Below are positions 9,530 to 50,933 of a DNA stretch of 64,000 nucleotides, piece by piece. The notes under the pieces were generated by a model that had not been told where the DNA came from, searched no databases, and was given only the letters and a program-made list of their open reading frames with translations. Both the position numbers and the translations under genes were made by a program. Origin of the DNA: Melastoma dodecandrum (Eukaryota; Streptophyta; Magnoliopsida; Myrtales; Melastomataceae); assembly GCA_029817715.1 (NCBI GenBank), contig JARUPY010000539.1, forward strand, positions 2,207,501-2,271,500, written 5' to 3'. Position 1 is the first letter of the stretch. Each line of letters begins with the position of its first letter.

Positions 9530-10041
9530 TGTAACAGCACGTACCATCGCCACATGATATTGTTCGCTTTGGACTCCGCAGGCCCGAAAACGCGTCTTAT
9601 GAGGAGAGGTCTCCACAGCCTATACAAGGCATGCTTCGTTCTCCTCAGCCCAGACCACCGCCACAGAATATTGTCCGCTTTGGACCTCGCCCGCAAGGTT
9701 TTGTTTTTTGGCCACACATGCCCGAAAACGCGTCCTATGAGGAGAGGTCTCCACAGCCTATATAAGGCCTGCTTCGTTCTCCTCTCCAACCGATGTGGGA
9801 TATTACAGTCCACCCCCTTGGGAGCCCAGCGTCCTCGCTGGCACACCGATCCGGTCCCTGACTCTGATACCATCTGTAATAGCCTAGACTATTGCCATAT
9901 GATATTGTCCGCTTTGGGCCTCGCCCGCACGGTTTTGTTTTTCGGCCACACAAGCCCGAAAACGCGTCCTATGAGGAGAGGTCTCCACAGCCTATATAAG
10001 GCCTGCTTCATTCTCCTCTCCAACCGACGTGGGATATCACA
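9530..10041 (-). mobile_element. TRIM (miniature LTR retrotransposon) with an extra truncated LTR
   Basis: On the minus strand: an LTR of 167 bp (plus-strand 9875-10041; TGTAATAGCC ... GGGATATCACA), a 67-bp internal part (9808-9874) whose plus strand carries CTCTGATACCA, the complement of the tRNA-Met primer site, then a second LTR ending at plus-strand 9807. The second LTR is preceded by a third, 3'-truncated LTR copy beginning at 9530 (TGTAACAGCA), joined near 9648. All three copies share ACGCGTCxTATGAGGAGAGG and CTCCACAGCCTAT. TGGG flanks the element on both sides, a possible 4-bp target duplication. There is no coding capacity; a 276-codon open frame through the LTRs is a chance product of the repeats. 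Confidence 0.85.
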
Positions 10042-18276: not shown

Positions 18277-20439
18277 CAAGAAACAGAGCCACGAGAACAG
18301 GACAAAAAAGAAGGGGAAGAACGAGTAGGAAAGTGGGTGAAGAAACGGAATGAAGAAGAATGGAATTCACGAGTAGAGGAGGAGGAGGAGGTGGACGAAT
18401 GGCCATGAGATGGGAGTTGGGTCGGCCATGGATGGCTTGATCTTCAGGTTGGAAGTGGTGGAGAAGCCATTGCCCATGGAATTTTGCAAAGTGAAGAAGG
18501 AAAATGACTTGCTTTGGGGGGTTGGGGGGGGGGGGGGATCGAAACAAGTATATAAGGCAATAAATTATTGTTTGGGAAAACAGGATGAAAAGTGAACAGG
18601 GGAAAGTCCCGATATTTTATGTGGGTCTCTCTCTACTTGTCTGTTCATGGTTTTCTCGTCCGCTTAATCCCGACTGTTTTTCTGGAGGACGTTACAATTT
18701 CACTCACGGGTGAACTCCGTGATTACGAACTAGTTGCGTAACGTGCGAAAGTGGTGTTCGTAAAATCGAATTTCATATTTTACGAAAGAACACATGTAAA
18801 TCAAAACCTTAAGAAACAGACTTTTAAAGGAATACTTTCGAAACATGCACTGTTTCGTGCTCATTGTTTTAACCTTTCCATTAAAATGAAGGTCAGTAGT
18901 TGTTACTACATGCCATGCGACTCCTCTCGACAAGTTTCTGTCCGAAAGAGAGCAGCCACAACAACTCGCGGTTGTACAATGGAAAGAACGGAACAGGGCT
19001 ATCCCTCACCCTCTCTTATTGGTACTTTGGCGACCACGAGCACGACACCTCGCTGAGATCTTTTTGATGAAGTCGTCGTAATGGGAAACGGATGGACGGT
19101 GAGGACTCCCCCAGATGGCACGACCTCCCCCAATTGCCATTCCAAGTGACATTTTCAGGTATAGGGATGATGTACGTGCACATGACCCGACACATTATTA
19201 ACGTTCCCCCCCACTGTTGGCGATATTTTTATCTTTTTTTTTTTGGGCCGTGATGGCGACCAATCCTACCAAAGGCGATTAACGCGTGAGACAAGGAGTA
19301 ACAACAAGGGTGAGTTTGTTTGTGGGAGGGAGTAAACAATGAATGATATAAGCTAAGGATAAAGTTTAAACTAGAAAAGTTGCCAATGGAATGAATGCGT
19401 TGAACACAGGCCACATACCCCAACTCCCCCCTCTTTCTCAATCTCTCCACAAACACGTGGATACTACTTGTCTCAACGCGAATTAAGAATGGCGAACAAA
19501 CGCAGCCCCTTCTCTTTTGTTGGCATATCCTTTGTTTGGGTTTCCTCCCACTTGGAATTTTTGTTGTTGCAAACTTGGGGAAAACTCTGGAAGGATGAGT
19601 GTGTAAGTGTGTGGCTTTTCTGCCTCTCTCGAAGCATTTATTCCCTCCATTTCATTGGTCCCCCCCCAAAAGGAATGCTTCTTTTGAGCGGCCTTGATTG
19701 CGTGACTGACAAGCCTTTCGAGGAGAAAGAATCCAACCAAAAGAGATCCGATTTCCTGCTTCTCATCCACCAAAGGACAGACCCCACCCCCCAATCACGA
19801 GGAAGTCTTACCGCAAGATATTTATATGGGGGGGACAAACGAGGTAGGTTTCGTTAGACGAACGTTACTTGTTTCATTAAAAATGTTTCAAAAGTGATAA
19901 GCAATCCCTCCTTAGTCGCTCTTTTAATTAACGAGGTATAGAGAGAAAATCACTACTTTAACTTGCGATTTAAATCGTCTAACATGAAATTACTACGATA
20001 TTATATTGAAAGTAGTGATTTTATCATGACGACCTAGTTGAAGGAATAAATTTTGTCGTTTTCACGGTCCGTCTGAATGTCGGAGATGCGGTAAGGGCCA
20101 TGTTCCTGTGCGAAGCTTTGGATGTGGGCCTGGCCCAACAAAGAAAATGTTAATAAATTATTTACTTCACTGGCGAATAAAATTGATTGGTTAGTAACGC
20201 GATTAAAATAAACATCACAATTATTTACTAAAAAGATCTTTTAGGCTGGGTTGATAACTGGGGAGGGGGATCCATCCAGATCAGAAAAGAAGACGAAGTC
20301 GGAGGAGGAGGAGGAACACCCACTTACCTCAATTACTTCCCCATTTGTCGGAATTTGGATCTTAATCCATCCCCAGGCGTCTCTGTCCATGGCCTTGCCC
20401 GCCGATGTTGGGTGGTGACCACCCTCTCCTGTCCCCACA
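18277..20439. other. Intergenic, 2.2 kb, no gene identified
   Basis: The left end is the F-box/PP2 5' UTR, with a G-run at 18526-18537. The rest is AT-rich with short frames only; nothing resembles a family. An imperfect inverted segment around 18740-18790 is too short to classify. Confidence 0.45.
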
Positions 20440-21147
20440 AGGGAGGTTAGCAGCTAACCTCTGCTTGAAGAAATTGGTGGAGAAGGGTGATATTGCTATT
20501 TGGCAGAAACCCATCAATCATATGCACTGCAAAGTAAATGGAATTGCTGTCCAATACCCCCCTTTTGTGCCAGTCTTCTGATCCCGAGAACGCCGGGTTA
20601 GTTCGTTGATCTTGGTTCGTTCAGTTGCTCGTTGATCTTATTGAGAGAAATACTTCCGATGTCTTCTTTCTTATATCTCGTCGTCTTCAGGTACACCATT
20701 GAAACTTGCTAACCCGGTTGCCAAAAGTATCCGGGGATGAGGAGTTTGCTGGAGGGAAATTGGAAAACTGGCCCCATAGGTTAAACGCAGTGCCACCTAG
20801 GATTAGAATGACAACTGTGCCGGGAGTTACAGCAGAGGATTTTACGAAGAACACAACTTTGGAAGCGAAGGGTGGCATACTACAAGAAGATGAACAACCA
20901 GCTGGAGAGTCCTGGAAGGTATAGGAATTTGCTGGATATGAATGCTAATCTGGGGGGATTCGCAGCTGCCCTTGTGAACGACCCGGTTTGGGTGATGAAT
21001 GTCGTTCCGGCAGGAAGCGAAACGAACACTTTGGGGATTATTTATGAAAAAGGGGCTTATAGGAACATGCCAAAGCTGGTATCGTCTCAACGAAGAAGAG
21101 TTTTTGCCTTCTGTTCCGACTTGGTGTTCAGTATCTACCAAGACAGG
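20440..21147 (+). pseudogene. Truncated PMT-type methyltransferase (DUF248) copy
   Basis: Two stretches match the plant Golgi PMT family. 20455-20580 reads KLVEKGDIAIWQKPINHMHC and then breaks near 20580. After about 110 bp ending in a CAG acceptor-like site, 20704-21147 reads [40 protein letters not shown] and [10 protein letters not shown] with one or more frameshifts (for example at about 20875). Both ends of the protein are missing, including the N-terminal membrane anchor and the region after VFSIYQDR. The gap between the two blocks may be an old intron, so this looks like a genomic fragment rather than a reverse-transcribed copy. Known: intact members are putative pectin (homogalacturonan) methyltransferases. 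It ends about 0.55 kb before the pararetrovirus. Confidence 0.86.
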
Positions 21148-21840
21148 TAAGTGAAGACTCTGACAGAGTGGACATGAACCACGGCGTCTCTACCAGATCA
21201 TCGATCACGAGGATGCCCTCGAGCCCGGGAGAAGCGGCGGTTCACAGTCAAGTCTCACTGAACCGCCCCTGATCCCAACTCTCCCACATCATAGTGGACA
21301 TAAAAGCGAACTCAACCCGCATTTTCCTTTTCTTTCAGTCATTCATCTGATTCTTTTCAAGATCTCATTACATACAGAAGGCTGTTGTCCAGTTTTAGGA
21401 GAATCCCCTCCCCCATTCTGTACAAATAAACGAAGTGGCTTACTATTTTTGGGTTCGATACCTAAACATAACATTACATTTTTTACTAGTTTATATAATA
21501 AAGGCTGAAAATGGAAGCTTGAAACGAAGGCGAATGGGCTTGTTTTTGGGTGCTCGTGGAGAAAATGTACTGTGTAACTACTTGGGGGGGACAGTGTTTT
21601 GGATCGACCGACCATTTCGAGCGGTTGAGATGAGATGTCCGAGAAAATTCATTCAGTTTGACCTGACTTTGCTGTTTTTTATAGAGTCTAGTTCCCTTCT
21701 ACAGCTAGTGGAAAAAAGAATTTGGAGTTTACGGTGGGAGTTTCGGAAATTCCCAATTTACGGTGGTCCTATTTTTGACTTTTTCCAAAAAATCAATTCA
21801 ACCCCAAAAGTTTGACAAAGTCGTCAATTAGGTCCTTGAG

Positions 21841-24800
21841 ATGGCTGGAGAAGGAAAATCTTCGGGAAATCCTTCAGGGACTCCATCACGATTGGAGTTC
21901 GTTCCAGAAGCCAGATTGTCTCCTTTTGGAATTAGCAAGAGTATAAATGATATTTTAACTCAGCTAACCATTCAGGGGAGCAATGAAAGTCTAGAAAGCC
22001 GAAACCAAATGGCAAGGGAAGTAGGCTCCATTGTAAATACAATGTTAGACGCTCTGGAAAGAGAAAGAGGTTTAAAAAGGCCTGAAGCCGAGGCGACCTC
22101 TGGACTGGAAAGTACTACAGGAAAGCCAGTCGAAAGGTTGAATCTGGGAGGAAGAAATTCCAAACAGAATCAAGGCAAGAGTGTAGATGAAATGTATAGG
22201 GAGTCAGTGGCTCCTTTCATTTCAGACTCGCAAAAGCGAAGTGCAAACTTGAACTCCCAAAGTGGGGAGTTGGCGAAAGACTTAAGGAAAGCCTTAGGTC
22301 TGGCAGAAGATACGCCAGTTCATTTAGACAACAGAACGTTTAATGAATTGGTAACTGCGAAGAGGGAGATTTACAGGCCCGATTATCCTCATAGGACTAA
22401 ACAAGAGTTTGTCCCAAGGAATAATATTTTAAAGCCAATAATAACCCCTGGTTCTTTTCTGGATATTGATTGTGAAAAGCACGTATCTGAAAAGATAGAT
22501 GAGTGGTTATCACTTATTCGGATGACAGCATCTGCAGGAGGAGTACCTCCTGGAGCGGTCTACGAATTGTGTGTGGCAGCCCTCATGGGTACAGCGCAGA
22601 AATACTGGAAAACTTTGGTGGCACACACAGACATCAAGGAAAAGATAGATCAGGCGCTGACGGTTGACGGTGTATTAGCAATCATAGCTGATGCCCTGAA
22701 ACGTGAGTTCTGTGGTTTTTCGTTATCCACTGAAACTGTGGAAAAAGAGCAGTCCTTGACAGCTCTGGTTAAACTACAGATCTGTGATATGTGCTGGTTT
22801 GATAGCTACGTGTGCGAATTCCAGAAATATTATTACAATCTGGATGTAGTATCACAACAGTTCATATTAGGAACCTTTTTTGCAAAACTTCCCGAACCTT
22901 GGCCAGAAGTTGCGCAAAAGGCCTATGAATTACTTCTGAGTGAGGAAAAGATTGTCTCTGGACTCGGAGGTAAAATTCAGGCGGTGAAGTACGCAATGCG
23001 TAAGGCATGTACTGAGCTCCAGGTGAAAGAGGCAGCTAAGAAGCTACCATACCTGAACAAGAGCTGTTGTTCTCAGATAGAGTATGTGCCTGGAAGATAT
23101 GGATGCGATACTCGCAGTACTCCAGGAGACTCTTTGAAGAGAAGGAACTTTCCTCGTAAGAGGAAGTTTGTTGGGTACAACAAAAAGAAAGTTTGGCCCA
23201 AGAAGGACTTCCAGCGTAAGCAAAAGGGAGGTCCTGCTTACAAACCAAGGAGGTTTGTGAGGAGAAGGGATAACCTGAAGGATAAAGATAGGATCGATGC
23301 CTTCAAAAGAAAGCATGGCAGAGAACCTAAATGTCCTAAGGGAAAACCCTTGAGCAGTTGTAATTGCTGCTGGTTTTGTGGCTCAAAGGACCACAAAGCG
23401 GATAGTTGTCCGAAGAAGAACCAAAGGAGAGAAAGACTCCGTATGGTCTTCCTAGACAACAGGAGTCGTGAGGAAGAAGTCCTTGCTTATGAACCAATAG
23501 ATGAGCAAGAGATTTCAGACTTAGATTCGGAAGTAGAATCAATTTATGAGATTGTGTCAAATTATGATACGGACTCAGATGATGATTCTGATCTCTGGAC
23601 CGAACATCTGTTCATGATGCGAGCAGTGAGGGAAGAAGATGGTGATGAGTTGGTTCCTTTGGAAACAACGAATCAGGTACTGGAGGAAACCCACCAGTAC
23701 GAAGATCCATCCCAGTCAATTCTGGAATGGAGGTTGCCAAATGTCAATGCGAGGGAGGTTTATGAAGTATCGAGATTTAGGTTTCGATCCACCATAGATA
23801 TCTCGCAGACGGAGGCGACGGCGCAAGTCACAAGCACTGAGCTTGAGACTTTGGATATCCCACTCTTGAATGTACAACGCATAAGAGATACCATGCGTAA
23901 CGCGAGAGGTGTATATAACTATATACACATTGGGTTGATCCAGATAGGGCTAGTACCGCTGTTTCATTTACCAGCGGATAGTCCTGTGGTAGCAGCAGTG
24001 ATCGATAAACGATGGAGAGAGTTTAGAGATCAGCTGATATCAGAAGTACAGGCCAATTTAGCACATGGCCCTGTATGGTTCCAAGTCCATCCAAACTTTA
24101 TGATGGCTTTGAACGATCGTTGTTTGGGGACTTCATTGACATTAAGAATCAAGTCAATGAATATGGATCGAATGAATCCCCAAGCTAAGTATTTGGCGTA
24201 TCACACTAGGGTAATTTACAGATTGGTAAATACCACTAGTCCTGGTGTGAGGAACATCTCTAGACTTACAGAGTTGTTCGAGGAAGGTCCAAACAACTAC
24301 CAACAGTTCCATAGGCGTGAGGTAAATCCATTGGAATTAACCTGGCCAAGGAGTTGGGTTATGACTGAACCTGGTAGTAGCTCTAGGCCCATTAGTGCGG
24401 CGAACATCCGACAGAGGGGTAATGAAATTACTCTTATGTTAGGAGATCCGTCAAGGGTCAGTGAAAGAGCTGATAGGCATTTGCCTATGCTTAGCGAAAG
24501 AGCTGACAGGCATTTGCCTGTGAGGATGCCAATCCTGAGAGAACCGTTCAATAGAACGCCCTCTGAAGTCTCTTCAAGAGCTAGTGATGTGGGAGAGGAT
24601 GTAATAGTCTCTCGACCAGAGGTTGCAAGCGCACCTCCACTAATAGAAGAGATGTCTCGAAGATCTGTTGATTCGAGAACCCCGTCACAACATACGGGGA
24701 GAATCGTAGGGTATAGACAGGTATCATTACCAGTCTATGAAGACCCTGTAGATCAACCAAGAGAGGAGTCTATACGAATGTTAAGAGTAACCAATACTGG

Positions 24801-27063
24801 TAGCTCTTTATCTGAGATTCCTGAAGTTTGTAAGGTTATCGAGCAGATAGCCAAGCAAAGGTCTATTGCGATAGACGATATCTGGAGGATGATAGAACCA
24901 TCCCAAAGTGTACTTGAGAATATTGGGTTTAGTGTCAGGAAGACAGACATGAGCACATATGTGGCTCTAACTTTCAAATTTCCTGGATACTATGAGTATT
25001 CTTTAGATACTTTAATAGACACTGGGTGTAGCATAACTTGTGCTAGACTCAATGCTCTGCCAGATGAGTGGTGGGAACCACTGCAGAAACCCATCCACAT
25101 GGTTAACGTCGATGGCATGGCCACAATTGTTGGTCATAAGGCAAGTAACGTGCCTGTCTTTATTGGTGGACAAAAGTTCATCATTAAAGAGATTCTTGCA
25201 CATCCTTTATTAGAGGCCGACATCATTATTGGTAACGCCTTTTTAAAGGGACAAAAGGAAAACCTTCCCTTTGTGCAGAATGAAAATGATGTTTCCATCG
25301 GTGGGGTAAAAATAAGTATTCTACAAGAGCCTAGAATTAGGTTAAAATTTGGCTTTTATCCGGTAAAATGGACAGAATACTGTGGCGATATCCCATGTGA
25401 AAGAGCTTTCAGAGTGCGAGCTCAACGTGGTGATATACGGTTGGATGAGAATGAATCATGGGTACAAACCATGTTTTCTCCAACGAATGCCAGTAATAGT
25501 AGCTGGTATGACGACCTGTTTACCAATCCAAAACAGGAAGTGTGTATGGCTGTAAAGTTAACAGGGATGAAATGGGATAAGTTCCTGATAAAACTGGCCG
25601 ATAACTTTAGTGAAGATCCGCTGAAGTTATGGACTCGAAATGGCCTAAAGGCTAAATTAGAGTTGAAAGATCCCGGAACCATTATAAGAGCCAGAAACAT
25701 TACGTATACGGCTGAGATGGTTGAGGAGTTTGATAAACAAATTCCTGAGTTGCTTGGAAAGGATTTGATTAGGGACAGTTACAGTCCGCATTCTAGTCCA
25801 GCCTTTATGGTAATTAACCATGCCGAGCAGGTGCGAGGCAAAGCACGAATGGTTATAGATTATCGTCAGCTTAATAAAGCTACAAAGGACGATGGCTATA
25901 AGATTCCAACTGCGGGAGATCTTATTGATAGGATTAGTTTGAGTCAACCAAAATACTTTTCTAAATTTGACTTGAAAAGTGGATACTGGCAAGTCAAAAT
26001 GGAAGAAGAGTCGGTTCCTCTAACTGCCTTCAATGCTCCGCGAGGAATGTTTGAATGGTTGGTTATGCCATTCGGTCTGAAAAATGCTCCAGGCGTGTTT
26101 CGGCGCAAAATGGATAATGCTTTTAAGCAGGTCCGAAAATTTTGTGCGGTCTATATTGACGATGTGCTAATCTACAGTCAGTCTGAAGATGAACACATGG
26201 GGCACCTTGATCAGGTGACTGATATCTTCCGACGGAAAGGTATGATTCTATCAGAAAAGAAGATAGAATGGTTTAAGGAATCAGTTAACTTTCTAGGCAT
26301 GGAAATTGAGCAGGGAAAAATTAAACTGCAAAATCATATTGCTGAGAAAATAGTTAATTTTCCTGACAGACTTGAGGATAGGAAGCAAGTCCAAAGATTT
26401 TGTGGATGCGCTAACTATGCAAGAAAGTTTGTGAAAGATCTCTCCCAAGACCTGAGTAGGATTTCGAAGAAAACCTCTTCTACAAGTCCTTGGAAATGGG
26501 AAGATGAAGACACTCAGTCCATTAGAAGGATTAAAGCAAAGGTAAAAAATTTACCACAATTAGCTTTGCCATCTGATAGAGACGAGTTAGTCTTGGAAGT
26601 TGATGCTTCTGAAGAATTTTGGGGAGCAGTCCTCAAAATTAGAGGACGAAAACCAGAACCGGTATGCAAATACTGGTCGGGAAGCTTCAAGGGGTACGAG
26701 CTAAGATACCCGATACATGAAAAAGAAGTATTAGCCTTAAAATATGGAATAAAGGCTTTTTACATCTTTTTGGCACCGAAAGCATTTTTAGTGCGATCTG
26801 ACTCGACCTATGTAAAAATGTTTATGAGTCTGAACCTTAAGGAAGCTAGGCAAACTAGACTCTTAAGGTTGCAGGAACAATTGAGCTATTATAAATATGA
26901 GGTCGAATACATTAAGTCCGACCACAACATAATAGCTGACTCTCTCTCTAGAGAACTTGCAAATACCTCTCTTTCTAAAAACTCTGCAGATGGATCCTCC
27001 TGCAAAGAGAAAGATATGCTGGGGATGCAAGAAGGAGGGACATTCCCGAAAGGTATGTCCTAA
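21841..27063 (+). CDS. Pararetroviral polyprotein: coat-like, movement, protease, RT, RNase H
   Basis: 1740 residues from an ATG. Order as read: Ser-rich N-terminus; coat-like region about 180-525 with a very basic stretch (430-480) and a zinc knuckle C510-x2-C513-x4-H518-x4-C523; acidic linker (540-650); 30K movement-protein core about 665-860 with GLIQIGL at 698; linker 860-1030 with an 11-residue tandem duplication; aspartic protease with D1060-T-G; reverse transcriptase about 1300-1500 with FSKFDLKSGYWQV, LVMPFGLKNAPGVF and YIDD at 1438-1441; RNase H with acidic residues D1588, E1629, D1654 and D1700. All catalytic motifs are present. In badna-, petu- and florendoviruses the movement domain comes first and the coat after it; here the coat-type zinc knuckle is before the movement domain. 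The last 74 nt overlap the next ORF. Confidence 0.95.
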   Translation: MAGEGKSSGNPSGTPSRLEFVPEARLSPFGISKSINDILTQLTIQGSNESLESRNQMAREVGSIVNTMLDALERERGLKRPEAEATSGLESTTGKPVERLNLGGRNSKQNQGKSVDEMYRESVAPFISDSQKRSANLNSQSGELAKDLRKALGLAEDTPVHLDNRTFNELVTAKREIYRPDYPHRTKQEFVPRNNILKPIITPGSFLDIDCEKHVSEKIDEWLSLIRMTASAGGVPPGAVYELCVAALMGTAQKYWKTLVAHTDIKEKIDQALTVDGVLAIIADALKREFCGFSLSTETVEKEQSLTALVKLQICDMCWFDSYVCEFQKYYYNLDVVSQQFILGTFFAKLPEPWPEVAQKAYELLLSEEKIVSGLGGKIQAVKYAMRKACTELQVKEAAKKLPYLNKSCCSQIEYVPGRYGCDTRSTPGDSLKRRNFPRKRKFVGYNKKKVWPKKDFQRKQKGGPAYKPRRFVRRRDNLKDKDRIDAFKRKHGREPKCPKGKPLSSCNCCWFCGSKDHKADSCPKKNQRRERLRMVFLDNRSREEEVLAYEPIDEQEISDLDSEVESIYEIVSNYDTDSDDDSDLWTEHLFMMRAVREEDGDELVPLETTNQVLEETHQYEDPSQSILEWRLPNVNAREVYEVSRFRFRSTIDISQTEATAQVTSTELETLDIPLLNVQRIRDTMRNARGVYNYIHIGLIQIGLVPLFHLPADSPVVAAVIDKRWREFRDQLISEVQANLAHGPVWFQVHPNFMMALNDRCLGTSLTLRIKSMNMDRMNPQAKYLAYHTRVIYRLVNTTSPGVRNISRLTELFEEGPNNYQQFHRREVNPLELTWPRSWVMTEPGSSSRPISAANIRQRGNEITLMLGDPSRVSERADRHLPMLSERADRHLPVRMPILREPFNRTPSEVSSRASDVGEDVIVSRPEVASAPPLIEEMSRRSVDSRTPSQHTGRIVGYRQVSLPVYEDPVDQPREESIRMLRVTNTGSSLSEIPEVCKVIEQIAKQRSIAIDDIWRMIEPSQSVLENIGFSVRKTDMSTYVALTFKFPGYYEYSLDTLIDTGCSITCARLNALPDEWWEPLQKPIHMVNVDGMATIVGHKASNVPVFIGGQKFIIKEILAHPLLEADIIIGNAFLKGQKENLPFVQNENDVSIGGVKISILQEPRIRLKFGFYPVKWTEYCGDIPCERAFRVRAQRGDIRLDENESWVQTMFSPTNASNSSWYDDLFTNPKQEVCMAVKLTGMKWDKFLIKLADNFSEDPLKLWTRNGLKAKLELKDPGTIIRARNITYTAEMVEEFDKQIPELLGKDLIRDSYSPHSSPAFMVINHAEQVRGKARMVIDYRQLNKATKDDGYKIPTAGDLIDRISLSQPKYFSKFDLKSGYWQVKMEEESVPLTAFNAPRGMFEWLVMPFGLKNAPGVFRRKMDNAFKQVRKFCAVYIDDVLIYSQSEDEHMGHLDQVTDIFRRKGMILSEKKIEWFKESVNFLGMEIEQGKIKLQNHIAEKIVNFPDRLEDRKQVQRFCGCANYARKFVKDLSQDLSRISKKTSSTSPWKWEDEDTQSIRRIKAKVKNLPQLALPSDRDELVLEVDASEEFWGAVLKIRGRKPEPVCKYWSGSFKGYELRYPIHEKEVLALKYGIKAFYIFLAPKAFLVRSDSTYVKMFMSLNLKEARQTRLLRLQEQLSYYKYEVEYIKSDHNIIADSLSRELANTSLSKNSADGSSCKEKDMLGMQEGGTFPKGMS
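24460..24522 (+). repeat. 33-bp in-frame duplication in the pararetroviral ORF1
   Basis: Copies at 24460-24492 and 24493-24522 encode SERADRHLP twice, separated by a Met-Leu. It lies in the unstructured linker between movement protein and protease and keeps the frame open. The copies differ at a few bases, so the duplication predates some later changes. Confidence 0.85.
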
Positions 27064-27700
27064 TAAGGGAGATGGTGAGCATAGTGATGCTGGTTCCGTT
27101 TCAGGAACGAAGGCGGCAGTTCTCTGCTGGCAGTGCAAGCAACTAGGACATCGTTCTTACGAATGTCCCAAGAAGCTGAAAACTACGGATTCCCAGAAGG
27201 GGAAGGCTGAACTTAAGGAGAAAGCAAAAGCTGACTCCGAGAGTAAGGCGAAACCAGATCTCCAGAAGGAGATGGCTAATCCCAAAGAGGCTGAGGCCAG
27301 ATCTAAGGGAAAGGCGAAAGAATCCCAGAAGGGGATGGCTAGATCTAAAGGAAAGGCAATAGCCGATCCTAAAGAGAAAGCGAGATTTTCCCAGAAGGGG
27401 AAGACAGATCTGAAGGAGAAGGGTAACACCAACTCTAAAGGAGATGTGAAGAAAGATCTTCAAAAGAAGATGACAGATCTGGAGGAAAGCTCCAGAAGAA
27501 ATGTGAAAATGGCATATCTGAAAGACAAGGCAAAGGCTGAGTCAGAAGAGAAGGCCAGGAAGAAGAAGAAAGCCAAGAGGCTTGGGTCTTCTGATCCCAA
27601 AGGGGATGATTCTGCAAAGGATGGTCCTAAGAAGGACGGAAAGGTTGAAGAACCTTGGTGGTCTCCGTTGAGCAGTTTAATTACTGCCGAAACCACTTAG
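26990..27700 (+). CDS. Pararetroviral ORF2: two zinc knuckles plus Lys/Glu repeat tail
   Basis: 236 residues from the first ATG in the frame (MDPPAKRK), in the +1 frame relative to ORF1 and overlapping its last 74 nt. Two CCHC knuckles sit close together near the N-terminus: CWGCKKEGHSRKVC (about 9-22) and CWQCKQLGHRSYEC (about 49-62). The remaining 170 residues are a highly charged tract built on variants of SQKGKA, LKEKAK and SKGKAK, with a matching DNA-level repeat (CCAGAAGGGG). The last 46 nt overlap the open frame of ORF3. Inference: a nucleic-acid-binding accessory protein, perhaps a second nucleocapsid-like or virion protein. I know no described caulimovirid protein with this make-up, but I could not search. 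Confidence 0.8.
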   Translation: MDPPAKRKICWGCKKEGHSRKVCPNKGDGEHSDAGSVSGTKAAVLCWQCKQLGHRSYECPKKLKTTDSQKGKAELKEKAKADSESKAKPDLQKEMANPKEAEARSKGKAKESQKGMARSKGKAIADPKEKARFSQKGKTDLKEKGNTNSKGDVKKDLQKKMTDLEESSRRNVKMAYLKDKAKAESEEKARKKKKAKRLGSSDPKGDDSAKDGPKKDGKVEEPWWSPLSSLITAETT

Positions 27701-27783
27701 CCAAAGAGCAGAAAATTTCCATTAATCAAGCTGTGAAATCCTACAAGGCTTTATTACAAAGCAAGGAGGAACAGAAGGAGAAT

Positions 27784-29241
27784 ATGGAAACACAGTATGC
27801 TGAAGAAGAGGCTAAGTTTAAGGCCATAATAGGCGAGCCAATTCAAGTGGTAGACCTTGAACCAAGGGGAGAATCAGAGGAAGCGGTTGCAATGGAGTGT
27901 GAGCAATACTTCGACTTTGGAAGTGCTTACGCAGCATTGGAAGGTAATCTTGAAAAGAAAGAAAGCCTTGAGGAGGTAATTCCTGTCAAGGAGTCTGGTG
28001 ACAGTAGTCACGGTGGTAAAAACCACGATGGCAAAGGCCATGTTGGGAAAACCCAAGAGGATCTAGGAGGATCCTGGTTTTTTGATGAAGACTCATTTGA
28101 GGACGAATCCCTAAGTTGGGATGCGGCTGTAGTTTGTGGAGGACTCATGGCCGGCATCAAGCATGATGAAAAGCGCCAGATTGAGTTTTTTGCAAGAAAG
28201 ACCGTAGAATACATCAAAGATCTGGAGTATAAGCTATCGATTATGGCTTCAGGTGAAGAGGAGATGTCTAAAGTCGAAAAAGAAAGACAGCAGATTTTCT
28301 CCACAACAATGTCGATAATACCAGGGGAAGTCAGAGAGTATGATGTCCCAAAGGTAACAGTAGACATGAGTGAATCCTCTCTTGAGGAAAACACTGTACT
28401 TCAACCGTATCTACACTGGATATCGGGGAAGTGGCCATCTCTGAGAATTCATTCAGAAATGGTGGGAGTAGCAGCACCTTATGTGTATGCTGGGTTTGTA
28501 GACATACTGGAGATCGATAGATCAGAACTAGAATGCATGGAACCCCTGCCTACGTTGGTAAGGTACGTACTCGGATGCCTAGGTTACGGACCAAAGTATG
28601 CCACGGCATTGATTACTAGCACAATGAGGGAGGAAGAAGACCATCCCCAGTTTGGGAAGGTGATACTGCAGAACCTGCAAGTATGGAACATCCACCCTTG
28701 TGAGAGTAGACGTCTAACGGAACCTCAAAAGCAGGACCTCGATCAGAGGGGATTATGGCGGAAATACTACAAGGACAAAACTGTCCGAAAGGCCATAAGG
28801 GTTGAGTTCCTTGAAGATGTGCTAGAGCATGTGTTAGCCCGAAAGGACGAATATTACGTGCTCTGTGATGGTATGGTCACCGTCACAATTCTTCGGTCAA
28901 ACTTAAGCTTCATCGATGAGCAAGCAGGAGACCGAGGATGGCAGAGAATGCTCGACCTTCTGGATAGCTTCTGGAGGCGAGAGAACTCTGAGCTGCACCT
29001 CCGAACCGACACCTTCGAGGTTTGGAGCAAGATTGCTGATTTCACAGACAAGACCCTGAATCAGCAAATCGAGCATGATGCAGAGAGAGCCCAACAAATT
29101 CTTAATGCGGTCCAAGACCCGCCGGGACTCTCGGAAAAAGAAGGAGTTGGCGAGACTTCAAACACCAACAACAAGGAACGAGTCTCCCAAGATAGCGTAC
29201 AAATGCAGACGGGAGAAGATAACTGTATAAAGTTAGACTAG
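27784..29241 (+). CDS. Pararetroviral ORF3, function unknown
   Basis: The frame is open from 27655, overlapping ORF2 by 46 nt, but its first ATG is at 27784, giving 485 residues. The N-terminal 60 residues look helical and charged, followed by an acidic, His/Gly-bearing linker (SHGGKNHDGKGHVG) and a predicted globular part from about residue 190 with LPTLVRYVLGCLGYGPKYAT, FLEDVLEHVLARKDEYYVL and GDRGWQRMLDLLDSFWRREN. No enzyme motif is visible. Its place after the polymerase ORF corresponds to the transactivator/viroplasmin ORF of caulimoviruses or the unassigned ORF2 of florendoviruses, but position is the only support. How it is translated is open: reinitiation 84 nt after the ORF2 stop, or frameshifting in the overlap, where I see no canonical slippery heptamer. 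Confidence 0.8.
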   Translation: METQYAEEEAKFKAIIGEPIQVVDLEPRGESEEAVAMECEQYFDFGSAYAALEGNLEKKESLEEVIPVKESGDSSHGGKNHDGKGHVGKTQEDLGGSWFFDEDSFEDESLSWDAAVVCGGLMAGIKHDEKRQIEFFARKTVEYIKDLEYKLSIMASGEEEMSKVEKERQQIFSTTMSIIPGEVREYDVPKVTVDMSESSLEENTVLQPYLHWISGKWPSLRIHSEMVGVAAPYVYAGFVDILEIDRSELECMEPLPTLVRYVLGCLGYGPKYATALITSTMREEEDHPQFGKVILQNLQVWNIHPCESRRLTEPQKQDLDQRGLWRKYYKDKTVRKAIRVEFLEDVLEHVLARKDEYYVLCDGMVTVTILRSNLSFIDEQAGDRGWQRMLDLLDSFWRRENSELHLRTDTFEVWSKIADFTDKTLNQQIEHDAERAQQILNAVQDPPGLSEKEGVGETSNTNNKERVSQDSVQMQTGEDNCIKLD

Positions 29242-29341
29242 GACATTTTGTCGGTCATTAGGACCCCACTAACTTTAGCAACAGTTAGATTCCTTTTACT
29301 TTTAAGCTGGCAAACAGTGCATAGGCACCAGCTCCTTTGTG

Positions 29342-29348
29342 TATATAT
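29342..29348 (+). promoter_or_regulatory. Possible upstream TATA box of the pararetrovirus
   Basis: GTGTATATATTCAC, about 100 bp after the ORF3 stop and followed by a CT-rich tract (29396-29415). It is a second candidate for the pregenomic promoter; the downstream TATATAA at 29601 fits better. Confidence 0.3.
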
Positions 29349-29600
29349 TCACAAGCCTTCTACCTCATTTGGGGAGGCGATCTGAATAGAGAATTTTCTC
29401 TCACATCTCTCTGAGTTAGAAATTCTTTGATCGTCCTCCGGGAAAACCAATAGGTAATCCGAATAATACCTTAAGGAATCAAGAATAAGGTGGTTAGAAT
29501 TAACCAAACCTGGTTAAAGACTAACGGAAGGTCAGATCGTTAGATCAAAACCTTGAAAGGATTGAAGCCTAAGGGCCGAAACCTTTGGATGAGGAGTGTC

Positions 29601-29607
29601 TATATAA
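29601..29607 (+). promoter_or_regulatory. Likely pregenomic RNA promoter TATA box
   Basis: GTGTCTATATAAGACC resembles the 35S-type TATA context, with a purine/pyrimidine leader beginning about 30 bp later. From there to the primer site is about 530 nt, a normal leader length for pararetroviral pregenomic RNA. Confidence 0.55.
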
Positions 29608-29829
29608 GACCCTCAAGGTAAGGGCATTTGGTGTGACACAGAAGAGCCTCTCCACTCGATTCCCCAAATTTGAGGAATTCTTCACTCTTGAAGATCCATA
29701 GTGCGGAAGCTTGGTGAACCCTCTGAGCTATCCTATCGGTTAAGGTATGATAAACATCCTTTATGTTGTTTATGCTTTTCTTTCTTGAAAAGAGAATCTG
29801 AGAGAAGTGCAAGTGCACGAGTCATTCGT

Positions 29830-30138
29830 ATGACTGATTGTCCTAACCCAGAGTTGCTCCATTTGGATCACGGGGTTGGCAAGGATTCTACTACGGGACT
29901 ACAAAACACTGTAGTAGATCGATTAACAAGTATTTCAGCACAAATAACGCAGCTGACTGAACTTGTGGATAGCTATTCTAAGAAATTAGAAGAGCTGACT
30001 CTTTTGCAGAGTGAATTTGAGGATTATTTCCTTGAAGGTAAATCCAATCTTGGGTTTGCGGCAAGTTCGAGGTACTCAAACGAGTATTCGAGGTTGGTAG
30101 AACGCCGACGACAAAGACAAATAAGAAAACAATCTTAA
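29830..30138 (+). CDS. Small coiled-coil ORF in the pararetroviral leader
   Basis: 102 residues from the first ATG (MTDCPNPELL). The centre (about 30-65) is a heptad-like coiled coil, VVDRLTSISAQITQLTELVD and KKLEELTLLQSEFEDYF, and the C-terminus is strongly basic (RRRQRQIRKQS). An N-terminal coiled coil with a basic nucleic-acid-binding tail is the layout of the virion-associated proteins of caulimo- and badnaviruses, so a role of that kind is possible; sequence identity to them is not evident. Its place is odd: between the TATA box and the primer site, ending 22 nt before the latter. The frame is also open upstream to 29701 without an ATG. Confidence 0.55.
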   Translation: MTDCPNPELLHLDHGVGKDSTTGLQNTVVDRLTSISAQITQLTELVDSYSKKLEELTLLQSEFEDYFLEGKSNLGFAASSRYSNEYSRLVERRRQRQIRKQS

Positions 30139-30159
30139 GTTCGATTCCTGTATTATTAT

Positions 30160-30172
30160 TGGTATCAGAGCC
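30160..30172 (+). other. tRNA-Met primer-binding site
   Basis: TGGTATCAGAGCC is an exact 13-nt complement to the 3' end of plant initiator tRNA-Met, the minus-strand primer of caulimovirids. Pararetroviral sequence after it seems to end within about 200 bp, while ORF1 begins at the other end of the copy. Confidence 0.8.
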
Positions 30173-30360
30173 CGCTTAAGATCAGAATTCCTAAATTGTT
30201 TTGAGGGATTAGATTGAAAAAATAAAACTTCTTGGGTAAATTTGAAGGAAAAAGGTGGTAAATAGTACAACTGCCGTAAATCCGTAATTTTGAAACTCGC
30301 AGCCATAAAAATCAAAATTCTTTAAAAACTAGCGATAAAACGGTACAAAGCTCGTTTTTT

Positions 30361-30726
30361 CTAAGTGACTTTTAAGCAGGCGACCGACAGACTGAGCTCA
30401 TGGGGGGAAAAGATCACTTTTGCTTCTTGTCATTTTTAGAAGGGTAGTATGTCATAATTCCGAATCCCCCAGTTACAAGATAATCTAAGAACAACAAACA
30501 GTAAACAAGTTTAAAAGTTATTTACATCATCATCATTACATGTTATGTTAATTATCACGTGAAAAGAAATAAAGAAGTCAATTTTTACTCAAATATATAT
30601 ACATCAGAGGTTTTATTCCATTTCCCTGCAACTCAAGTTCATTCCTTTTTCAATCCCCATTTCCCCTCCCCTCCCTCCCCACCACGAAACGGCATTGCCC
30701 ATGAGTTCCCTTTTCGAGTCCCCGTG
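30361..30726. other. Host flank and IQD promoter/5' UTR
   Basis: Sequence from the approximate right edge of the viral copy to the IQD start codon. CAAATATATATACATC at 30591-30606 is a plausible TATA region for the IQD gene, followed by a CT-rich leader. The insertion thus sits within about 0.3 kb of that promoter. Confidence 0.5.
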
Positions 30727-33671
30727 ATGGGATTCCTCCGGCGTCTCTTCGGTTCTCATGGAAAGCGCGGCAAGGCCACCTCTCCCTCGAAGCAGGGGAG
30801 CCGCGGCAGGAGCTCCCTCGATGAGGGAGGCAGTGACCGCCGGGGGGGCCGACTGACCCTCTCTTCCCAGTTCAATGTGGGTTTCTATGAGAAGGACACG
30901 GGAGATGTCGACCCCAACAAGCACGCTATCGCCGTGGCAGCCGCTACTGCTGCTGTGGCAGAGGCTGCGCTCGCCGCGGCGCAGGCGGCTGCGGAGGTCG
31001 TTCGGCTCACCAGCGGCGGTAGGAGGGGTTACATGAGGGTTGAGGAGTCGGCGGCGGTTAGGATTCAGTCCGCATTCAGGGGATATCTGGTCAGTTTACT
31101 TTGTTTATCCTAATCATGAAAAAAAGTTTTGTTTTTTAATGTATTTTTGCCAGCAAAAAGGTTTGCTTCTTGTGGGTTTGCGTGTTTGGGGGGGATGGAT
31201 GGATGGGGGCGGGGGAGGGGGGTGGCGATTACTTGCTGGGATCTGGGAATAACTGTAACAGGGGGATCGACCCTTTTAGGAAGCTTCGATGTTCATCGAA
31301 ACACTTCTTGCTTTCCAGCTGGTTGGTAACGCTTGGAAGGTATTGTATTAAAGGTAGTTGGTCAGCTTTGCTTGTATTTTTCCCCAAAAGAAAGTAAAGT
31401 TCTGATGAGTGAAAAAAAAAGTAGTTAATTAATTAGGTTTTGGGTAGAGGATTAGTTGAGATTAGTCCCAGGGTGATGGTAGTAATCATCACTAATCCGG
31501 ACCCAAAAACTTGGGGACAGCCAGCACTAAAAGTAGTTTCAGTTTCTAGTGGACTCTTGTAGATTCACGGGGTCAGAACTTTTCAGCCGAAAGATATGGT
31601 GGAGTAATTTATCTCTTCTCTCGGTTTTCTCAATTGGAAGTTAGTGGGAAATGAAGGCTTGGTACTGCACGTGTCTGTTGGTGATGATGATGAAAGTTTG
31701 ATCTCTTTCGAGCTCCATTATTTGAGTTCTCAAAAGGGATTTTAGGGTCTCTTTCCTTTTTGATGGTGATGGTGATGCAGTGGCTGCTGCTAATCTCCTC
31801 CAGAGTCTGTTTGACTAATTCTGAATATCACCCACCAATTTTGAGAGGACCAGTTTGAACATAAAGCACTTTTTCTGGGACAATGAACATTACGACCTGC
31901 CCCCTTCCCAGTATCAGATTCTTCATCTTTCTCCTAACCTTGGATCAGTTCCTCTTTGTTGGGTGGTCAGGGTTTGCTTCATTACTTCATGGGGCAAATT
32001 ATGGTCTTGCAATTGATGCCCCCAGCTAAAGTGGACCGAACTTCGTTGATTTTTTAAAAGGAAGAAGAGTCCTGCTTTTATTTAAGTTAGGCTGGTGGGA
32101 ACTTTGTTTATTCCACCCATCTGTAGGGCCATTCACGGGCGATTCATTACAATTAATAATAGCTGGTATGTTCTGCATGGAGCGTTTCCCTCTTCCTTTC
32201 CAGAAATCCTACCGGTTTTTTTAACTTGGGAGAGCATAATCAGAATCTGTCCCCATCCATTGTCCTTTCTTGTATCTGCTGTTTTGTGTAATGGTCCCTT
32301 GCTGGCCTGACTGCGATCTGATATAACTGGGGACCAGAATGGATCATTTCGACAAGAGGGCCGAACTTGTGGAGCAGAATGAAATGCGACTGTGCGATTC
32401 TTTTGGTGTTTATAGGCTCTGGGGATATTTCTCCAAGCTGTAGTGATTCTGAAATGAACGTTCTTTCTGTGCTGCCTGGACATGTTTGACCCGATTGCTG
32501 GGAGGTGTGTTTGGCAGTTGACTTGCTTGTAAAGTGTCCTTGTCATCGTAATTTCGCAAGAATTGATAAACGAAAGTATCATGCGATCCAAAAATTCATG
32601 TGAGGTTCCAACGGTCAGGAAGATTACTTTAAGATGACTCTTGAGTCCTCTTGTGATATTCTCAGGCAAGGAGAGCATTGAGGGCACTGAAAGCTCTTGT
32701 GAAGCTGCAAGCACTGGTGAGAGGCCACATTGTTCGGAAGCAAATGGCGGACATGCTCAGGCGCATGCAGACACTCGTTCGGCTGCAAGCACGAGTTCGT
32801 GCAACTCGGTCATCTACGGCATTGCCGTCGTATTCCGGAAGCAAATCCTCGTCATCTCATCGGACTGTAAGAATATCTCTAGACGGGTAGTAGTTTTTCA
32901 GCATGATTTAGATTTGAGTCGATTTCTGTTATGCCATCTGAATTGTTTCAGAGATGTGGATCCGTCTCGAACCTTGGGGGAAGTGTTAACACTGAAGGGA
33001 CGAAATTCAGATCGAATTGGTTAGACCGGTGGATGGAAGAAAGCGTGCCCAACAATCACGGAGATGCTTCCTGTAGATACTGGCACGATGATGAGAGGAA
33101 TGCCAAGATCCTCCAAGTAGACACTTGGAAGCCGCACTTGAATTTCCCAAAGGATCATGGAATCATCGATCCCTATCACACCTTCGACTCTCCTTACATC
33201 AAAGGACCAAACCCGGTAGCAAGTTTTTCATCCGAGGAGATCACATCATTGAGATCTGCGCATCCATACGGCATCAAAGGCGACATGCTAGGTTCAGTGG
33301 AGAACAGCCCACAGATGGTCTCAGTCTCGTCAAGGCCCGGAAGCAGCAGCAGCGCAAGAAGAGGTCCATTCGCCCCGGCGAAGAGTGAGTGCGGGTGGGG
33401 ATCATATATCAGGTACTCTGGCCATCCAAACTACATGTCGAACACGGAATCCTCCCGTGCCAAGGTGAGGTCGCAGAGTGCACCGAAGCAGAGGGTCGAG
33501 CTTGACAGCCGAGGGTTGTCCAAGAGGGGAGCCCTCCGCCTCCGGAGTTCTTGGGAAACCGAGTCCATCTCCGAGAGGGGATATCCTATTAGTGCGGACT
33601 TGAGAAAGAAGGCCGCAGCTTATTCGTCCTCCAACCGACTGAATACGTTACGCAGTTCGAACACGAGCTGA
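30727..33671 (+). CDS. IQD: IQ-domain (IQD) calmodulin-binding protein
   Basis: Three exons (30727-31089, 32666-32866, 32952-33671) join to 427 residues, all in phase 0. The start is the ATG of [16 protein letters not shown]; a longer frame upstream lies in the leader. The IQ67 domain (about 106-170) reads [20 protein letters not shown] ... [15 protein letters not shown] ... [10 protein letters not shown], with the family's conserved intron after FRGYL. Downstream are [10 protein letters not shown] and, near the end, [21 protein letters not shown] split over the DUF4005-type region. An Ala-rich segment (75-97) precedes the IQ domain. Known: IQD proteins bind calmodulin, decorate microtubules, membranes or nuclei and shape cell form. 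The motif set is closest to the IQD22-25 group. The first intron is long (1.6 kb). Confidence 0.94.
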
Positions 33672-36620: not shown

Positions 36621-39600
36621 ATGGTCAGAAATCTCCTGCTTCACCTCTTCCTCGTCGCCACCACCCTCTTCCCCTTGTTCGGGCCATCTTCCGTAGCCCT
36701 TTCGACCCCCGGAGATGACCAGGTCGGAGAAAGGTCCCGCCTTCTGGACTTCAAGCACTCCCTCGACGACCCGGAGATGCTGGCTTCGTGGAATGATGAC
36801 ATTCACTATTGTGAGTGGGACGGCGTACTCTGCCAGGATGGTGTCGTGGTCTCGCTGTCGTTGTCTGGACAGTCCCTCAAGGGGCCGCTCTCGCGGTCCC
36901 TCTTCGCGCTGTCGGGACTCGTATCAGCGGACCTTTCGTTCAACTCCTTCTCCGGAGAGCTTTCTGGGGAGGTGTCCATCCTTAGGAACCTAAATGTACT
37001 GTCTTTGAGCCATAACGGGCTTTCCGGGGAGCTGCCAGCTCGGCTTGGGGAGTTAGCTGGGCTTGAAACGCTGAAGCTGGGGTTCAACTCGTTTGTGGGG
37101 AGAGTTCCGCCGGAGCTCGGAATGCTGAACCGGCTACAGATGCTTGAGCTCTCCAGTAACGCCCTTGTTGGAGAGCTCCCGAGCGAACTCAGTGGGATGA
37201 GTCGGCTGCGATTCTTGGACTTTGCAAATAACTTATTGTCGGGCCCCCTCCCGGGGAGCATGCTCACGGGGCTGGCATCTCTATCCTCATTCGATGTATC
37301 AAATAACTCATTTTCTGGTCGGATACCACCCGAGATTGGAACGCTGAAGAACCTTACTGAGCTTTACATCGGCATGAACCATTTCTCTGGACCGCTGCCT
37401 CCAGAGGTTGGTGAGCTTTCGAGACTCGTGAACTTTTACGCGCCCTCGTGCTTTATTTCTGGTCCAATACCTGAGGAGATCTCCAGGCTGAAGTCCCTCA
37501 ATAAGCTTGACCTTTCCAACAATCCGTTGAAAGGCCCCATCCCTAAATCCTTTGGAAAGCTTCAGAATTTGACCATACTAAACATAGTCAATGCCGGGCT
37601 TCACGGGTCGATTCCCGGCCAGCTGGGAAATTGCCGGAACTTGATAACTTTGGTGCTGTCCTTCAATTCTTTGACTGGGTATTTGCCTGTGGAGTTGTCG
37701 GAGCTTCCCTTCCTGGTGTCATTTGCGGCAGAAAAGAACCAGCTTTATGGTCCTCTGCCTTCATGGCTGGGGAACTGGAAGATGGTGGATTCTATCCTGC
37801 TCTCGGGCAATTGTTTCTCGGGTAAGATACCACCAGAGATCGGTAGCTGCACCATGTTGAAGCATCTCGGCTTGGCTAATAATTTATTAACCGGATCAAT
37901 ACCGAAGGAGTTATGCACTGCGGGGTCTTTGATGGATGTTGATTTCACCAGCAATTTCCTGTCTGGAAGTATTGGTGATGCGTTTTCCGGATGCGTGAAT
38001 CTAACTCAGCTTGTGTTGGTGAATAATCGGATAGAAGGATCCATTCCTGAGTATCTCTCCAGTCTTCCGTTAACGGTGCTTGATATCGACTCCAACAACT
38101 TCTCCGGAACAATTCCCCTTAGCTTATGGAGTTCTTCCTATCTGATGGAATTCTCAGCTGCAAACAACCAGCTTGAAGGGACCCTCCCAGAAGATATAGC
38201 CAGAGCAGCGGTGCTCGAGAGGCTTGTTCTGAGCAACAATATTTTGAGGGGGAGAATTCCAAAGGCGATTGGGAATTTCACTTCCCTGTGCTTTCTTAAC
38301 CTAAACTACAATCATTTTGAAGGAATGATTCCCGCAGAGCTCGGTCAGTGCATCAATCTGAACACACTGGACTTGGGAAATAATCGATTCTCGGGGTCTA
38401 TTCCACCTTCCTTGGCTGGCCTACGGCAGCTTCAGTGTTTGGTTCTTTCTCATAATAACTTATCAGGGCCAATTCCAGCAGTAGCGTCTTCCTACTTCCG
38501 TCAGGCCAACATTCCTGATCTCACCTTTCATTCAGCATCATGGGCTATATGATCTGTCTTACAATCAATTGTCGGGCTCGATTCCTGAAGAACTGGGCTC
38601 TTGTATGGTGGTTGTAGATCTGCTTCTCAATGACAATTTGCTTTCTGGTGTGATCCCTAGATCTCTGTCCCGACTGAAGAATCTAACTACGGTGGATCTG
38701 ACTGGAAACATGCTTTCGGGTCAAATTCCTTCAATGCTAGGTGACTTGAGCAAGCTTCAGGGCTTGTACTTGGGTTACAACCGACTTTCAGGGTCCATCC
38801 CACAGAGCTTTGGTCGATTGAGAAATTTGGTGAAGCTGAACCTGACGAACAACAAGTTATCCGGCTCAATACCTCTGAGTTTGGGGAAGCTGAAAGGTTT
38901 GACCCACTTGGACTTGAGCTTCAACAATCTGAAGGGGGAGCTCCTTCCATCTCTCTCGGGTTTGCAGAACCTGGTGGGCCTACTCATGCAGCGAAACTCG
39001 TTCAGTGGTAAGCTTGATGCAGTGTTCCCGAATTTCACATCATGGAGAGTTGAAACAGTGAACTTGAGTTGCAATTCATTGTCTGGTGAGCTGCCTGAGT
39101 CACTGGGCAATCTCTCGTACTTGACCAGCCTGGATCTTCACGGGAACATGTTCACTGGAATAATTCCTCTGGCACTGGGAAATATGATGCAGTTGCAATA
39201 TCTCGATCTTTCAATGAACAGACTTTCTGGGGTGATCCCAAACGAAGTATGCAGTGTGCTGAGCCTGAACTACTTGAATTTGGCTAATAACAGCTTGTAC
39301 GGGCCGATACCTGGGAGCGGTGTTTGCAGGAACCTATCAAAGGATGCTCTCATTGGGAATGCAAATCTGTGTGGAAGCATCATCAGTTCAGATTGCCATG
39401 CTAAGTGCTTTGGCAGCAAAATGCCTGCACTTGGTGCTTGGGGACTTTCAGGGATCGGGGTCGGTATGGCTGTGGGGATGGTGTGCTTTGCTTGTGCCTT
39501 GCGTAGGTTGATCACCAAAACCACCAAGCACTGTGACCCAGGGGATATTGAGGCAAGAAAACTGAACAGCTTTACACATAGTCTCTACTTCCTGGGTAGC

Positions 39601-50684: not shown

Positions 50685-50933
50685 CCCTTTCTTTCTTTTC
50701 TTTCTTCCTTCCTGTACATCATCAGCATCGTCCACACCATATTCGCCAATACCAAAAAACTCAATTCAAATTTGAAAAGTATTGCTGAAAGTAGAAACAA
50801 ACAGCAATCCGAACAGCTGTCTGGGGTAAGATTTCAGGCTCATGTAATCCCAAGGCTTGCGTGTGTTTCTGATCCCCCGGCGGGACCAGGGCTGTGGTGC
50901 CGCGTGTGCCTGTGTTTTCTTACTTGCATGCAA

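What the first reader, a model, noticed from the sequence alone, without database searches (positions are those of the whole stretch)
21700..30360. Near-complete endogenous pararetrovirus with three long open ORFs
The sequence shows every core caulimovirid domain in uninterrupted frames totalling about 7.4 kb, plus a TATA box and a tRNA-Met primer site, in one collinear genome unit. Most plant endogenous pararetroviruses are fragmented, rearranged or full of stops. The architecture (zinc-knuckle ORF2, unassigned ORF3, leader ORF) does not match a genus I can name, so it may represent an undescribed lineage.
Basis: partly seen in the sequence, partly recalled or inferred. Interest (0 to 1): 0.9.

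Follow-up and report, generated by a model that had tools for sequence, protein, structure and literature searches.

The report
Intact endogenous plant virus, undescribed lineage
A plant chromosome carries one nearly complete, unbroken copy of a plant DNA virus related to cauliflower mosaic virus; it fits no genus that could be tested and has an unusual gene layout, so it widens what is known of this virus family.

Summary
One circularly permuted unit of a plant pararetrovirus (Caulimoviridae), 8.3-8.8 kb, lies within about 21640-30400: three long open frames (1740, 236, 485 codons from ATG), a TATA box, an exact 12-nt tRNA-Met primer site, no LTRs, no integrase match. ORF1 reads CP - zinc knuckle - MP - protease - RT - RNase H. 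RT-RNase H identity is 57% and 55% to two unnamed database polyproteins with the same order and at most 47% to 41 named virus proteins. The tree puts the window with those two (100/98), outside sampled Caulimovirus, Ruflodivirus, Dioscovirus and Badnavirus, weakly beside strawberry sequences (probably Zendovirus). RT identity stays under a 62% genus-level cut-off, not under a 55% one. Solendovirus, Petuvirus, Xendovirus and Wendovirus could not be tested. New here: a 102-codon ORF upstream of the primer site, its weak start followed by the window's longest ATG-free run, then ORF1 with an optimal start: the RTBV leaky-scanning layout, but ahead of the primer site. ORF2 is a separate two-knuckle lysine-rich protein; ORF3 has relatives only in Melastoma candidum (84%). 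An undescribed genus-level lineage is likely. The host genome could not be searched.

The parts
21841..27063 (+). ORF1, 1740 aa polyprotein CP - CCHC - MP - protease - RT - RNase H
   Evidence: open frame; Pfam in pieces; start context G at -3 and G at +4
22741..23055 (+). coat protein domain PF22909 (ORF1 aa 301-405)
   Evidence: E 1.1e-8
23368..23409 (+). CCHC zinc knuckle of the coat protein (ORF1 aa 510-523)
   Evidence: same motif type in P0125 and P0126
23779..24237 (+). 30K-type movement protein domain PF01107 (aa 647-799)
   Evidence: E 6.4e-19
24952..25296 (+). aspartic protease PF02160 (aa 1038-1152), DTG at aa 1060
25834..26307 (+). reverse transcriptase PF00078 (aa 1332-1489), YIDD at aa 1438
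   Evidence: AlphaFold2 model of RT-RH pLDDT 89.8, best PDB match CaMV RT 8r0s
26497..26892 (+). RNase H PF17919/PF17917 (aa 1553-1684)
26990..27700 (+). ORF2, 236 codons, two CCHC knuckles and a Lys-rich tail with repeat copies spaced 132 and 66 nt; overlaps ORF1 by 74 nt in another frame
27784..29241 (+). ORF3, 485 codons, no known domain; 84% identical to Melastoma candidum P0124
29601..29607 (+). TATA box of the putative pregenomic RNA promoter
29747..29801 (+). three upstream ATGs with short frames (13, 12 and 9 codons, the last two nested in one frame)
29830..30138 (+). leader ORF, 102 codons, weak start context (C at -3, A at +4), possible coiled coil and basic C-terminus
29833..30399 (+). 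ATG-free stretch, longest on the + strand of the window
30160..30171 (+). tRNA-Met primer binding site

Best explanation
A single, near-complete, probably recently integrated copy of a circular plant pararetrovirus of an undescribed genus-level lineage, in the part of Caulimoviridae that holds Caulimovirus, Badnavirus and Dioscovirus (clade A of Diop et al., by inference). The circle was opened in the leader, between the primer site and ORF1, and joined to the chromosome about 0.3 kb upstream of the start codon of an IQD-like gene, without LTRs or integrase. Inferred working of the parental virus: polymerase II starts a pregenomic RNA near 29632; ribosomes pass short uORFs, some start at the weak AUG of the 102-codon leader ORF, the rest scan through an AUG-free stretch to the optimal AUG of ORF1; the polyprotein is cut by its own protease into CP, MP and RT-RNase H; tRNA-Met primes minus-strand synthesis at 30160. 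ORF2 (knuckles plus lysine-rich tail) probably binds nucleic acid, reached by reinitiation or from a separate RNA; ORF3 stands where some genera keep the transactivator gene, role unknown. Shown: sequence features, domain order, relatives, ATG depletion. Inferred: transcription, translation route, functions of ORF2, ORF3 and the leader ORF, and recency.
For: Domains and order; two relatives with the same order in one ORF, P0125 and P0126, the two best matches for RT-RH, CP and N-terminal pieces, P0125 also best for MP and protease; clade support 99 and 100/98; 0 of 184 covering proteins reach 62% in the RT piece, the best of 41 named virus proteins has 51.3%; named caulimovirids that span RT-RH lie at 34-47%; exact primer site; no LTRs. 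Leader: ATG is the only one of 64 trinucleotides absent from 29833-30360 (7.0 expected, 0 of 1000 shuffles as low; 0 of 102 control tiles reach 0 of 100, 5 reach 5 of 100 or fewer); start contexts weak at 29830, optimal at 21841.
Against: The larger, quick tree left the place of the trio open; the sister position to strawberry sequences has 88/85. By the 55% cut-off the window also links to 5 of 184 proteins outside the trio (P0001, P0007, P0022, P0023, P0054), and partial Rubus P0060 has 57% over 211 columns. 61.4% sits at the 62% cut-off and depends on where the piece is cut. Short named fragments score higher than whole ones (a cacao swollen shoot virus fragment 49% over 139 columns). Solendovirus, Petuvirus, Xendovirus, Wendovirus and Yendovirus were not comparable by name. 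Leader ORF: its codon usage beats 1985 of 2000 plain shuffles but a reverse frame scores alike (0.097 and 0.094); no family or solved structure matches it; three other trinucleotides are also low (GTC, ACC, TTA, each about 20 of 1000) and CAT is 2 against 5.3. Copies, RNA and host are unverified.
Confidence: 0.7

Rival explanations
1. It is a divergent member of the strawberry-type Zendovirus group rather than a lineage of its own.
For: Nearest labelled neighbours in the careful tree (88/85); RT piece 54.5-54.9% identical to Fragaria P0131, P0132 and P0134, 55.4% to unnamed P0054, which groups with Rubus, and 57% to a partial Rubus protein.
Against: Below the 62% cut-off; no such sister group in the larger tree; Pfam finds no coat protein domain in Fragaria P0131, which opens with the MP and runs on about 500 residues after RNase H. 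That P0131 is a Zendovirus is inferred from the host range in PMC9794742 and PMC11359110 (passages), not tested.
Confidence: 0.13
2. It belongs to an endogenous or exogenous group already described but not retrievable here (Xendovirus, Wendovirus, Solendovirus, Petuvirus or a numbered OTU).
For: Wendoviruses share the order CP, MP, protease, RT, RNase H, unknown last ORF (PMC9794742, passages); unnamed rows of the trees may be such viruses.
Against: Wendoviruses have four ORFs and two protease domains; here one ORF carries CP to RNase H, and one protease domain and one DTG were found (one search looked in aa 901-1350). Petuvirus-type polyproteins run MP then CP (PMC6256638, whole text).
Confidence: 0.13
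3. The frames stay open because the plant uses the proteins (domesticated genes), not because insertion is recent.
For: All three frames are open and the DTG and YIDD motifs kept; ORF3 is 84% conserved in a Melastoma candidum protein.
Against: Replication genes, primer site and promoter are kept together, as expected of a recent unit; there are no expression data either way.
Confidence: 0.03

Closest known systems
Unnamed polyproteins P0125 (1583 aa) and P0126 (1592 aa) in public contigs
   Same: Order CP - CCHC - MP - protease - RT - RNase H in one ORF; 57% and 55% over RT-RNase H; P0125 matches ORF1 in one stretch from 22231 to 26973 at 38%, P0126 in three stretches
   Different: No host or name; whether ORF2, ORF3 or the leader ORF accompany them is unknown (their contigs were not fetched)
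Strawberry (Fragaria) endogenous caulimovirid P0131, probably Zendovirus
   Same: MP - protease - RT - RNase H; nearest labelled rows in one of two trees
   Different: No coat domain found in the same ORF, long C-terminal part, RT piece 54.5%
Wendovirus (PMC9794742, passages)
   Same: Gene order CP, MP, protease, RT, RNase H, then an ORF without known relatives
   Different: Four ORFs and two proteases; no knuckle ORF after RNase H described in the passages seen
Rice tungro bacilliform virus and badnaviruses (PMC5902531, passages)
   Same: Polyprotein preceded by small ORFs free of internal AUG, read by leaky scanning
   Different: There the polyprotein is MP-CP-RT and the small ORFs follow the leader with its primer site; here the small ORF lies before the primer site. 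RT-RH 34-40%
Florendovirus (PMC4241990, passages)
   Same: Large polyprotein and a last ORF without known relatives; uninterrupted copies known
   Different: MP before CP; mostly two ORFs; no second knuckle ORF described in the passages seen

Membership tests
Caulimoviridae | CP, 30K MP, aspartic protease, RT and RNase H, without integrase or LTRs | tested here: met
Caulimoviridae | tRNA-Met primer binding site | tested here: met
Caulimoviridae | circular double-stranded DNA genome of 7.1-9.8 kb in virions | not testable with these tools
   only the integrated form is seen; its 8.3-8.8 kb fit (PMC7660458)
Caulimovirus and Ruflodivirus | RT inside the genus clade | tested here: not met
   RT piece 48-51%
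Badnavirus and Dioscovirus | RT inside the genus clade; MP before CP | tested here: not met
   order of P0163, of badnaviruses from PMC5902531
Florendovirus | polyprotein order MP, CP, protease, RT, RNase H | tested here: not met
   against PMC4241990; RT not compared by name
Zendovirus | RT at genus-level identity (62%, or 55% in older work) to the strawberry sequences | tested here: inconclusive
   54.5-54.9% to Fragaria, 55.4% to P0054, 57% to partial Rubus: under 62%, at the edge of 55%; naming of these as Zendovirus is inferred
Wendovirus | four ORFs and two protease domains | tested here: not met
   RT not compared by name
Vaccinivirus, Soymovirus, Rosadnavirus, Tungrovirus, Cavemovirus | RT identity of a genus member (62% cut-off) | tested here: not met
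   44, 38, 39, 37 and 41% in structure-based alignments of RT-RNase H, Cavemovirus over 235 columns only; RT alone not measured
Solendovirus, Petuvirus, Xendovirus, Yendovirus | RT inside the genus clade | not tested
   no sequence with these names was among the proteins retrieved

The most novel reading that the evidence does not exclude
A new caulimovirid genus with a layout not described before: a protein-coding ORF between the RNA start and the primer site, translated first and passed by leaky scanning to a CP-first polyprotein, plus a free-standing two-knuckle nucleocapsid-like protein encoded after RNase H in addition to the coat protein's own knuckle.
Probability: 0.38. Interest if true: 0.62.

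Novelty: new variant of a known kind. Interest (0 to 1): 0.47.

Why it matters
PMC5902531 sets two groups of caulimovirids apart: those with a transactivator and separate genes, and those without one, with an MP-CP-RT polyprotein read by leaky scanning. This unit has the second group's expression layout but a CP-first polyprotein and a large last ORF, so it bears on how the two arose. Its open frames give a clean query for relatives in other plants, and the leader layout is a sharp, testable hypothesis about how such RNAs are read.

Tried and rejected
LTR retrotransposon: no direct repeats of LTR kind in 19000-33000, no integrase match among the eight pieces and ORFs scanned. Ribosomal frameshift from ORF1 into ORF2: no slippery heptamer in the overlap 26957-27063. 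ORF3 as transactivator: no Pfam match up to E 10, one chance-level NCBIfam hit (E 0.036, far below cut-off), no PDB match, and the AlphaFold2 model is useless (mean pLDDT 34.9). Leader ORF as virion-associated protein: no match but chance-level ones; the coiled coil rests on a simple heptad count (24 of 1000 shuffles as good). Codon usage as proof of the leader ORF: not discriminating. Related viral contigs: two scans of IMG/VR, no relative confirmed. The promoter and terminator scan is of the bacterial type and says nothing here.

Rows dropped: for the first tree 76 rows, the window and 75 of the 220 proteins held, chosen by me; P0110 left out as too short. For the careful tree I left out 22 of the 76 (near-duplicates, short or long-branched rows, among them Viola yellow mottle virus and three Rosaceae-type rows), 54 used. 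No test of alternative trees was run. Of 216 proteins with an RT match, 32 that cover less than 90% were set aside.

Full report
What is there. Three long frames lie end to end on the + strand: ORF1 21841-27063 (1740 aa), ORF2 from ATG 26990 to 27700 (236 codons, overlapping ORF1 by 74 nt in another frame) and ORF3 from ATG 27784 to 29241 (485 codons). Scanned in pieces, ORF1 gives coat protein (aa 301-405), movement protein (about 647-799), aspartic protease (about 1038-1152), reverse transcriptase (about 1332-1489) and RNase H, with a CCHC knuckle at 510-523, a DTG at 1060 and a YIDD at 1438. A TATATAA lies at 29601 and an exact tRNA-Met primer site at 30160. No LTR-like repeat was found between 19000 and 33000, and no integrase matched. 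The unit is 8.3-8.8 kb, within the 7.1-9.8 kb of the family (PMC7660458, whole text seen).

Ends and neighbours. The order ORF1-ORF2-ORF3-promoter-primer site means that the circle was opened between primer site and ORF1. The last ATG before ORF1 is at 21635 and the first after the leader ORF at 30400; I take these as rough outer bounds, but the junctions are not known. Read by eye, an IQD-type coding start follows at about 30727 (recalled family, no profile run). No second caulimovirid fragment showed in the window with eight query proteins at E 1e-3.

Relatives. In a database of 5.8 billion proteins the best RT-RNase H matches among candidates of 627-1995 aa are P0125 (57%) and P0126 (55%), both unnamed; next by E-value come mixed plant and unnamed proteins, strawberry sequences at 49% and caulimoviruses at 44-46% (120 of 749 hits listed, 120 of 334). 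Both top matches have the same order in one ORF and end 306 and 283 residues after the YxDD motif, ORF1 302. Separate pieces agree: P0125 is best for CP, MP, protease, N-terminus and the MP-protease link; P0126 is second for CP and N-terminus, third for MP; P0148 is second for MP and protease. With RT alone, 184 of 216 matching proteins cover the piece: P0125 has 61.4%, P0126 59.2%, none 62%; 7 reach 55%; the best of 41 named virus proteins, strawberry vein banding virus, has 51.3%. A partial Melastoma candidum protein, P0110, has 61.6% over 159 columns. PMC13308828 (sections 6-8 and passages seen) uses 62% for genus-level units, Diop et al. 55% (PMC10377300 section 2 parts 1 and 2, PMC5766536 passages).

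Tree. With 76 rows the window joins P0125 and P0126 at 99, but its place in the larger group is open. With 54 rows and bootstraps the trio has 100/98 and stands beside two strawberry-type rows at 88/85. Caulimovirus, Ruflodivirus, Dioscovirus and Badnavirus rows lie elsewhere. Genera absent from the protein lists were reached through structure: the RT-RNase H model (pLDDT 89.8) aligns with Vaccinivirus at 44% identity, soybean chlorotic mottle virus 38%, rose yellow vein virus 39%, Agapanthus tungrovirus 37%, sweet potato collusive virus 41% over 235 columns (best 50 of 1513 matches listed), and CaMV RT 8r0s 44%. Short named fragments can score higher, up to 49% over 139 columns.

The leader. 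After three upstream ATGs with short frames (29747-29801) comes an ATG at 29830 in a weak context (C at -3, A at +4) opening 102 codons that end 21 nt before the primer site; ORF1 starts in an optimal context (G at -3 and +4). From 29833 to 30399 there is no ATG in any frame, the longest of the 1116 gaps between ATGs on the + strand. In 29833-30360 ATG is the only absent trinucleotide of 64, with 7.0 expected and 0 of 1000 shuffles as low; of 102 tiles of that size outside the unit none reaches 0 of 100 shuffles and 5 reach 5 of 100 or fewer. Split, the leader ORF gives 8 of 2000 and the rest to 30360 gives 69 of 2000; the last 151 nt before ORF1 are also ATG-free, which is not remarkable (644 of 2000). 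This is the sequence mark of leaky scanning as described for RTBV (PMC5902531, passages seen). Against it: codon usage does not favour the frame over a reverse one, nothing matches the protein, GTC, ACC, TTA and CAT are also low, and the minus strand has a 441-nt ATG-free run there too. The RNA 29632-30159 folds better than all 100 shuffles (z -3.7), but as a branched structure, not one long hairpin, so the shunt structure usual in the family was not recognised.

ORF2 and ORF3. ORF2 has two CCHC knuckles and a lysine-rich tail with repeats, in addition to the coat protein's own knuckle. ORF3 matches 2 proteins only, both from Melastoma candidum: P0124 (84%) and P0110, a gene model mixing RT and ORF3 pieces (in one search only the 7988 candidates sharing most words were scored). 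So the lineage occurs in Melastoma, and the host here may be a relative of it; this is inference. No transactivator domain was found and the model failed.

Reading. The unit meets the testable defining features of caulimovirids. It meets the criteria of no genus tested, with Zendovirus left inconclusive. The expression layout is that of the polyprotein viruses without a recognised transactivator, while the order CP-MP is that of wendoviruses (PMC9794742, passages). Searches of the open-licence PMC library for melastoma with pararetrovirus (two papers, one seen in passages, one in the listing), xendovirus/zendovirus (49), wendovirus (77), leaky scanning with primer site (93) and zinc knuckle (94) listed no paper on an ORF ahead of the primer site or a second knuckle ORF, judged from titles, starts of abstracts and the passages seen; subscription papers are not covered.

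Limits. The host genome could not be searched (12 calls unanswered), no RNA data were at hand, and several endogenous genera have no retrievable type sequence. Recency is inferred from about 2460 open codons only.

Noticed in passing
36621-40536: A leucine-rich-repeat receptor kinase is split into two ORFs (36621-38552 and 38569-40536) in different frames; pseudogene, intron or assembly error.
   Followed up: partly
11480-13066; 50857-52517; 53263-54729: Host-type genes: MatE transporter, LTI65/LTI78-like protein, PPR protein.
   Followed up: partly
24460-24522: A 33-nt-spaced tandem duplication (90% identical) inside ORF1 between MP and protease.
   Followed up: no
27188-27432: Three repeat copies spaced 132 and 66 nt in the lysine-rich part of ORF2.
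   Followed up: no
9861-9872: A second, one-mismatch tRNA-Met primer-like site on the minus strand; no match there to eight query proteins.
   Followed up: partly
21665-21690 and 29742-29746: Pyrimidine-rich stretch ending in AG near the left end of the unit and a donor-like AAG/GTATG in the leader; possible splice sites, not tested.
   Followed up: no
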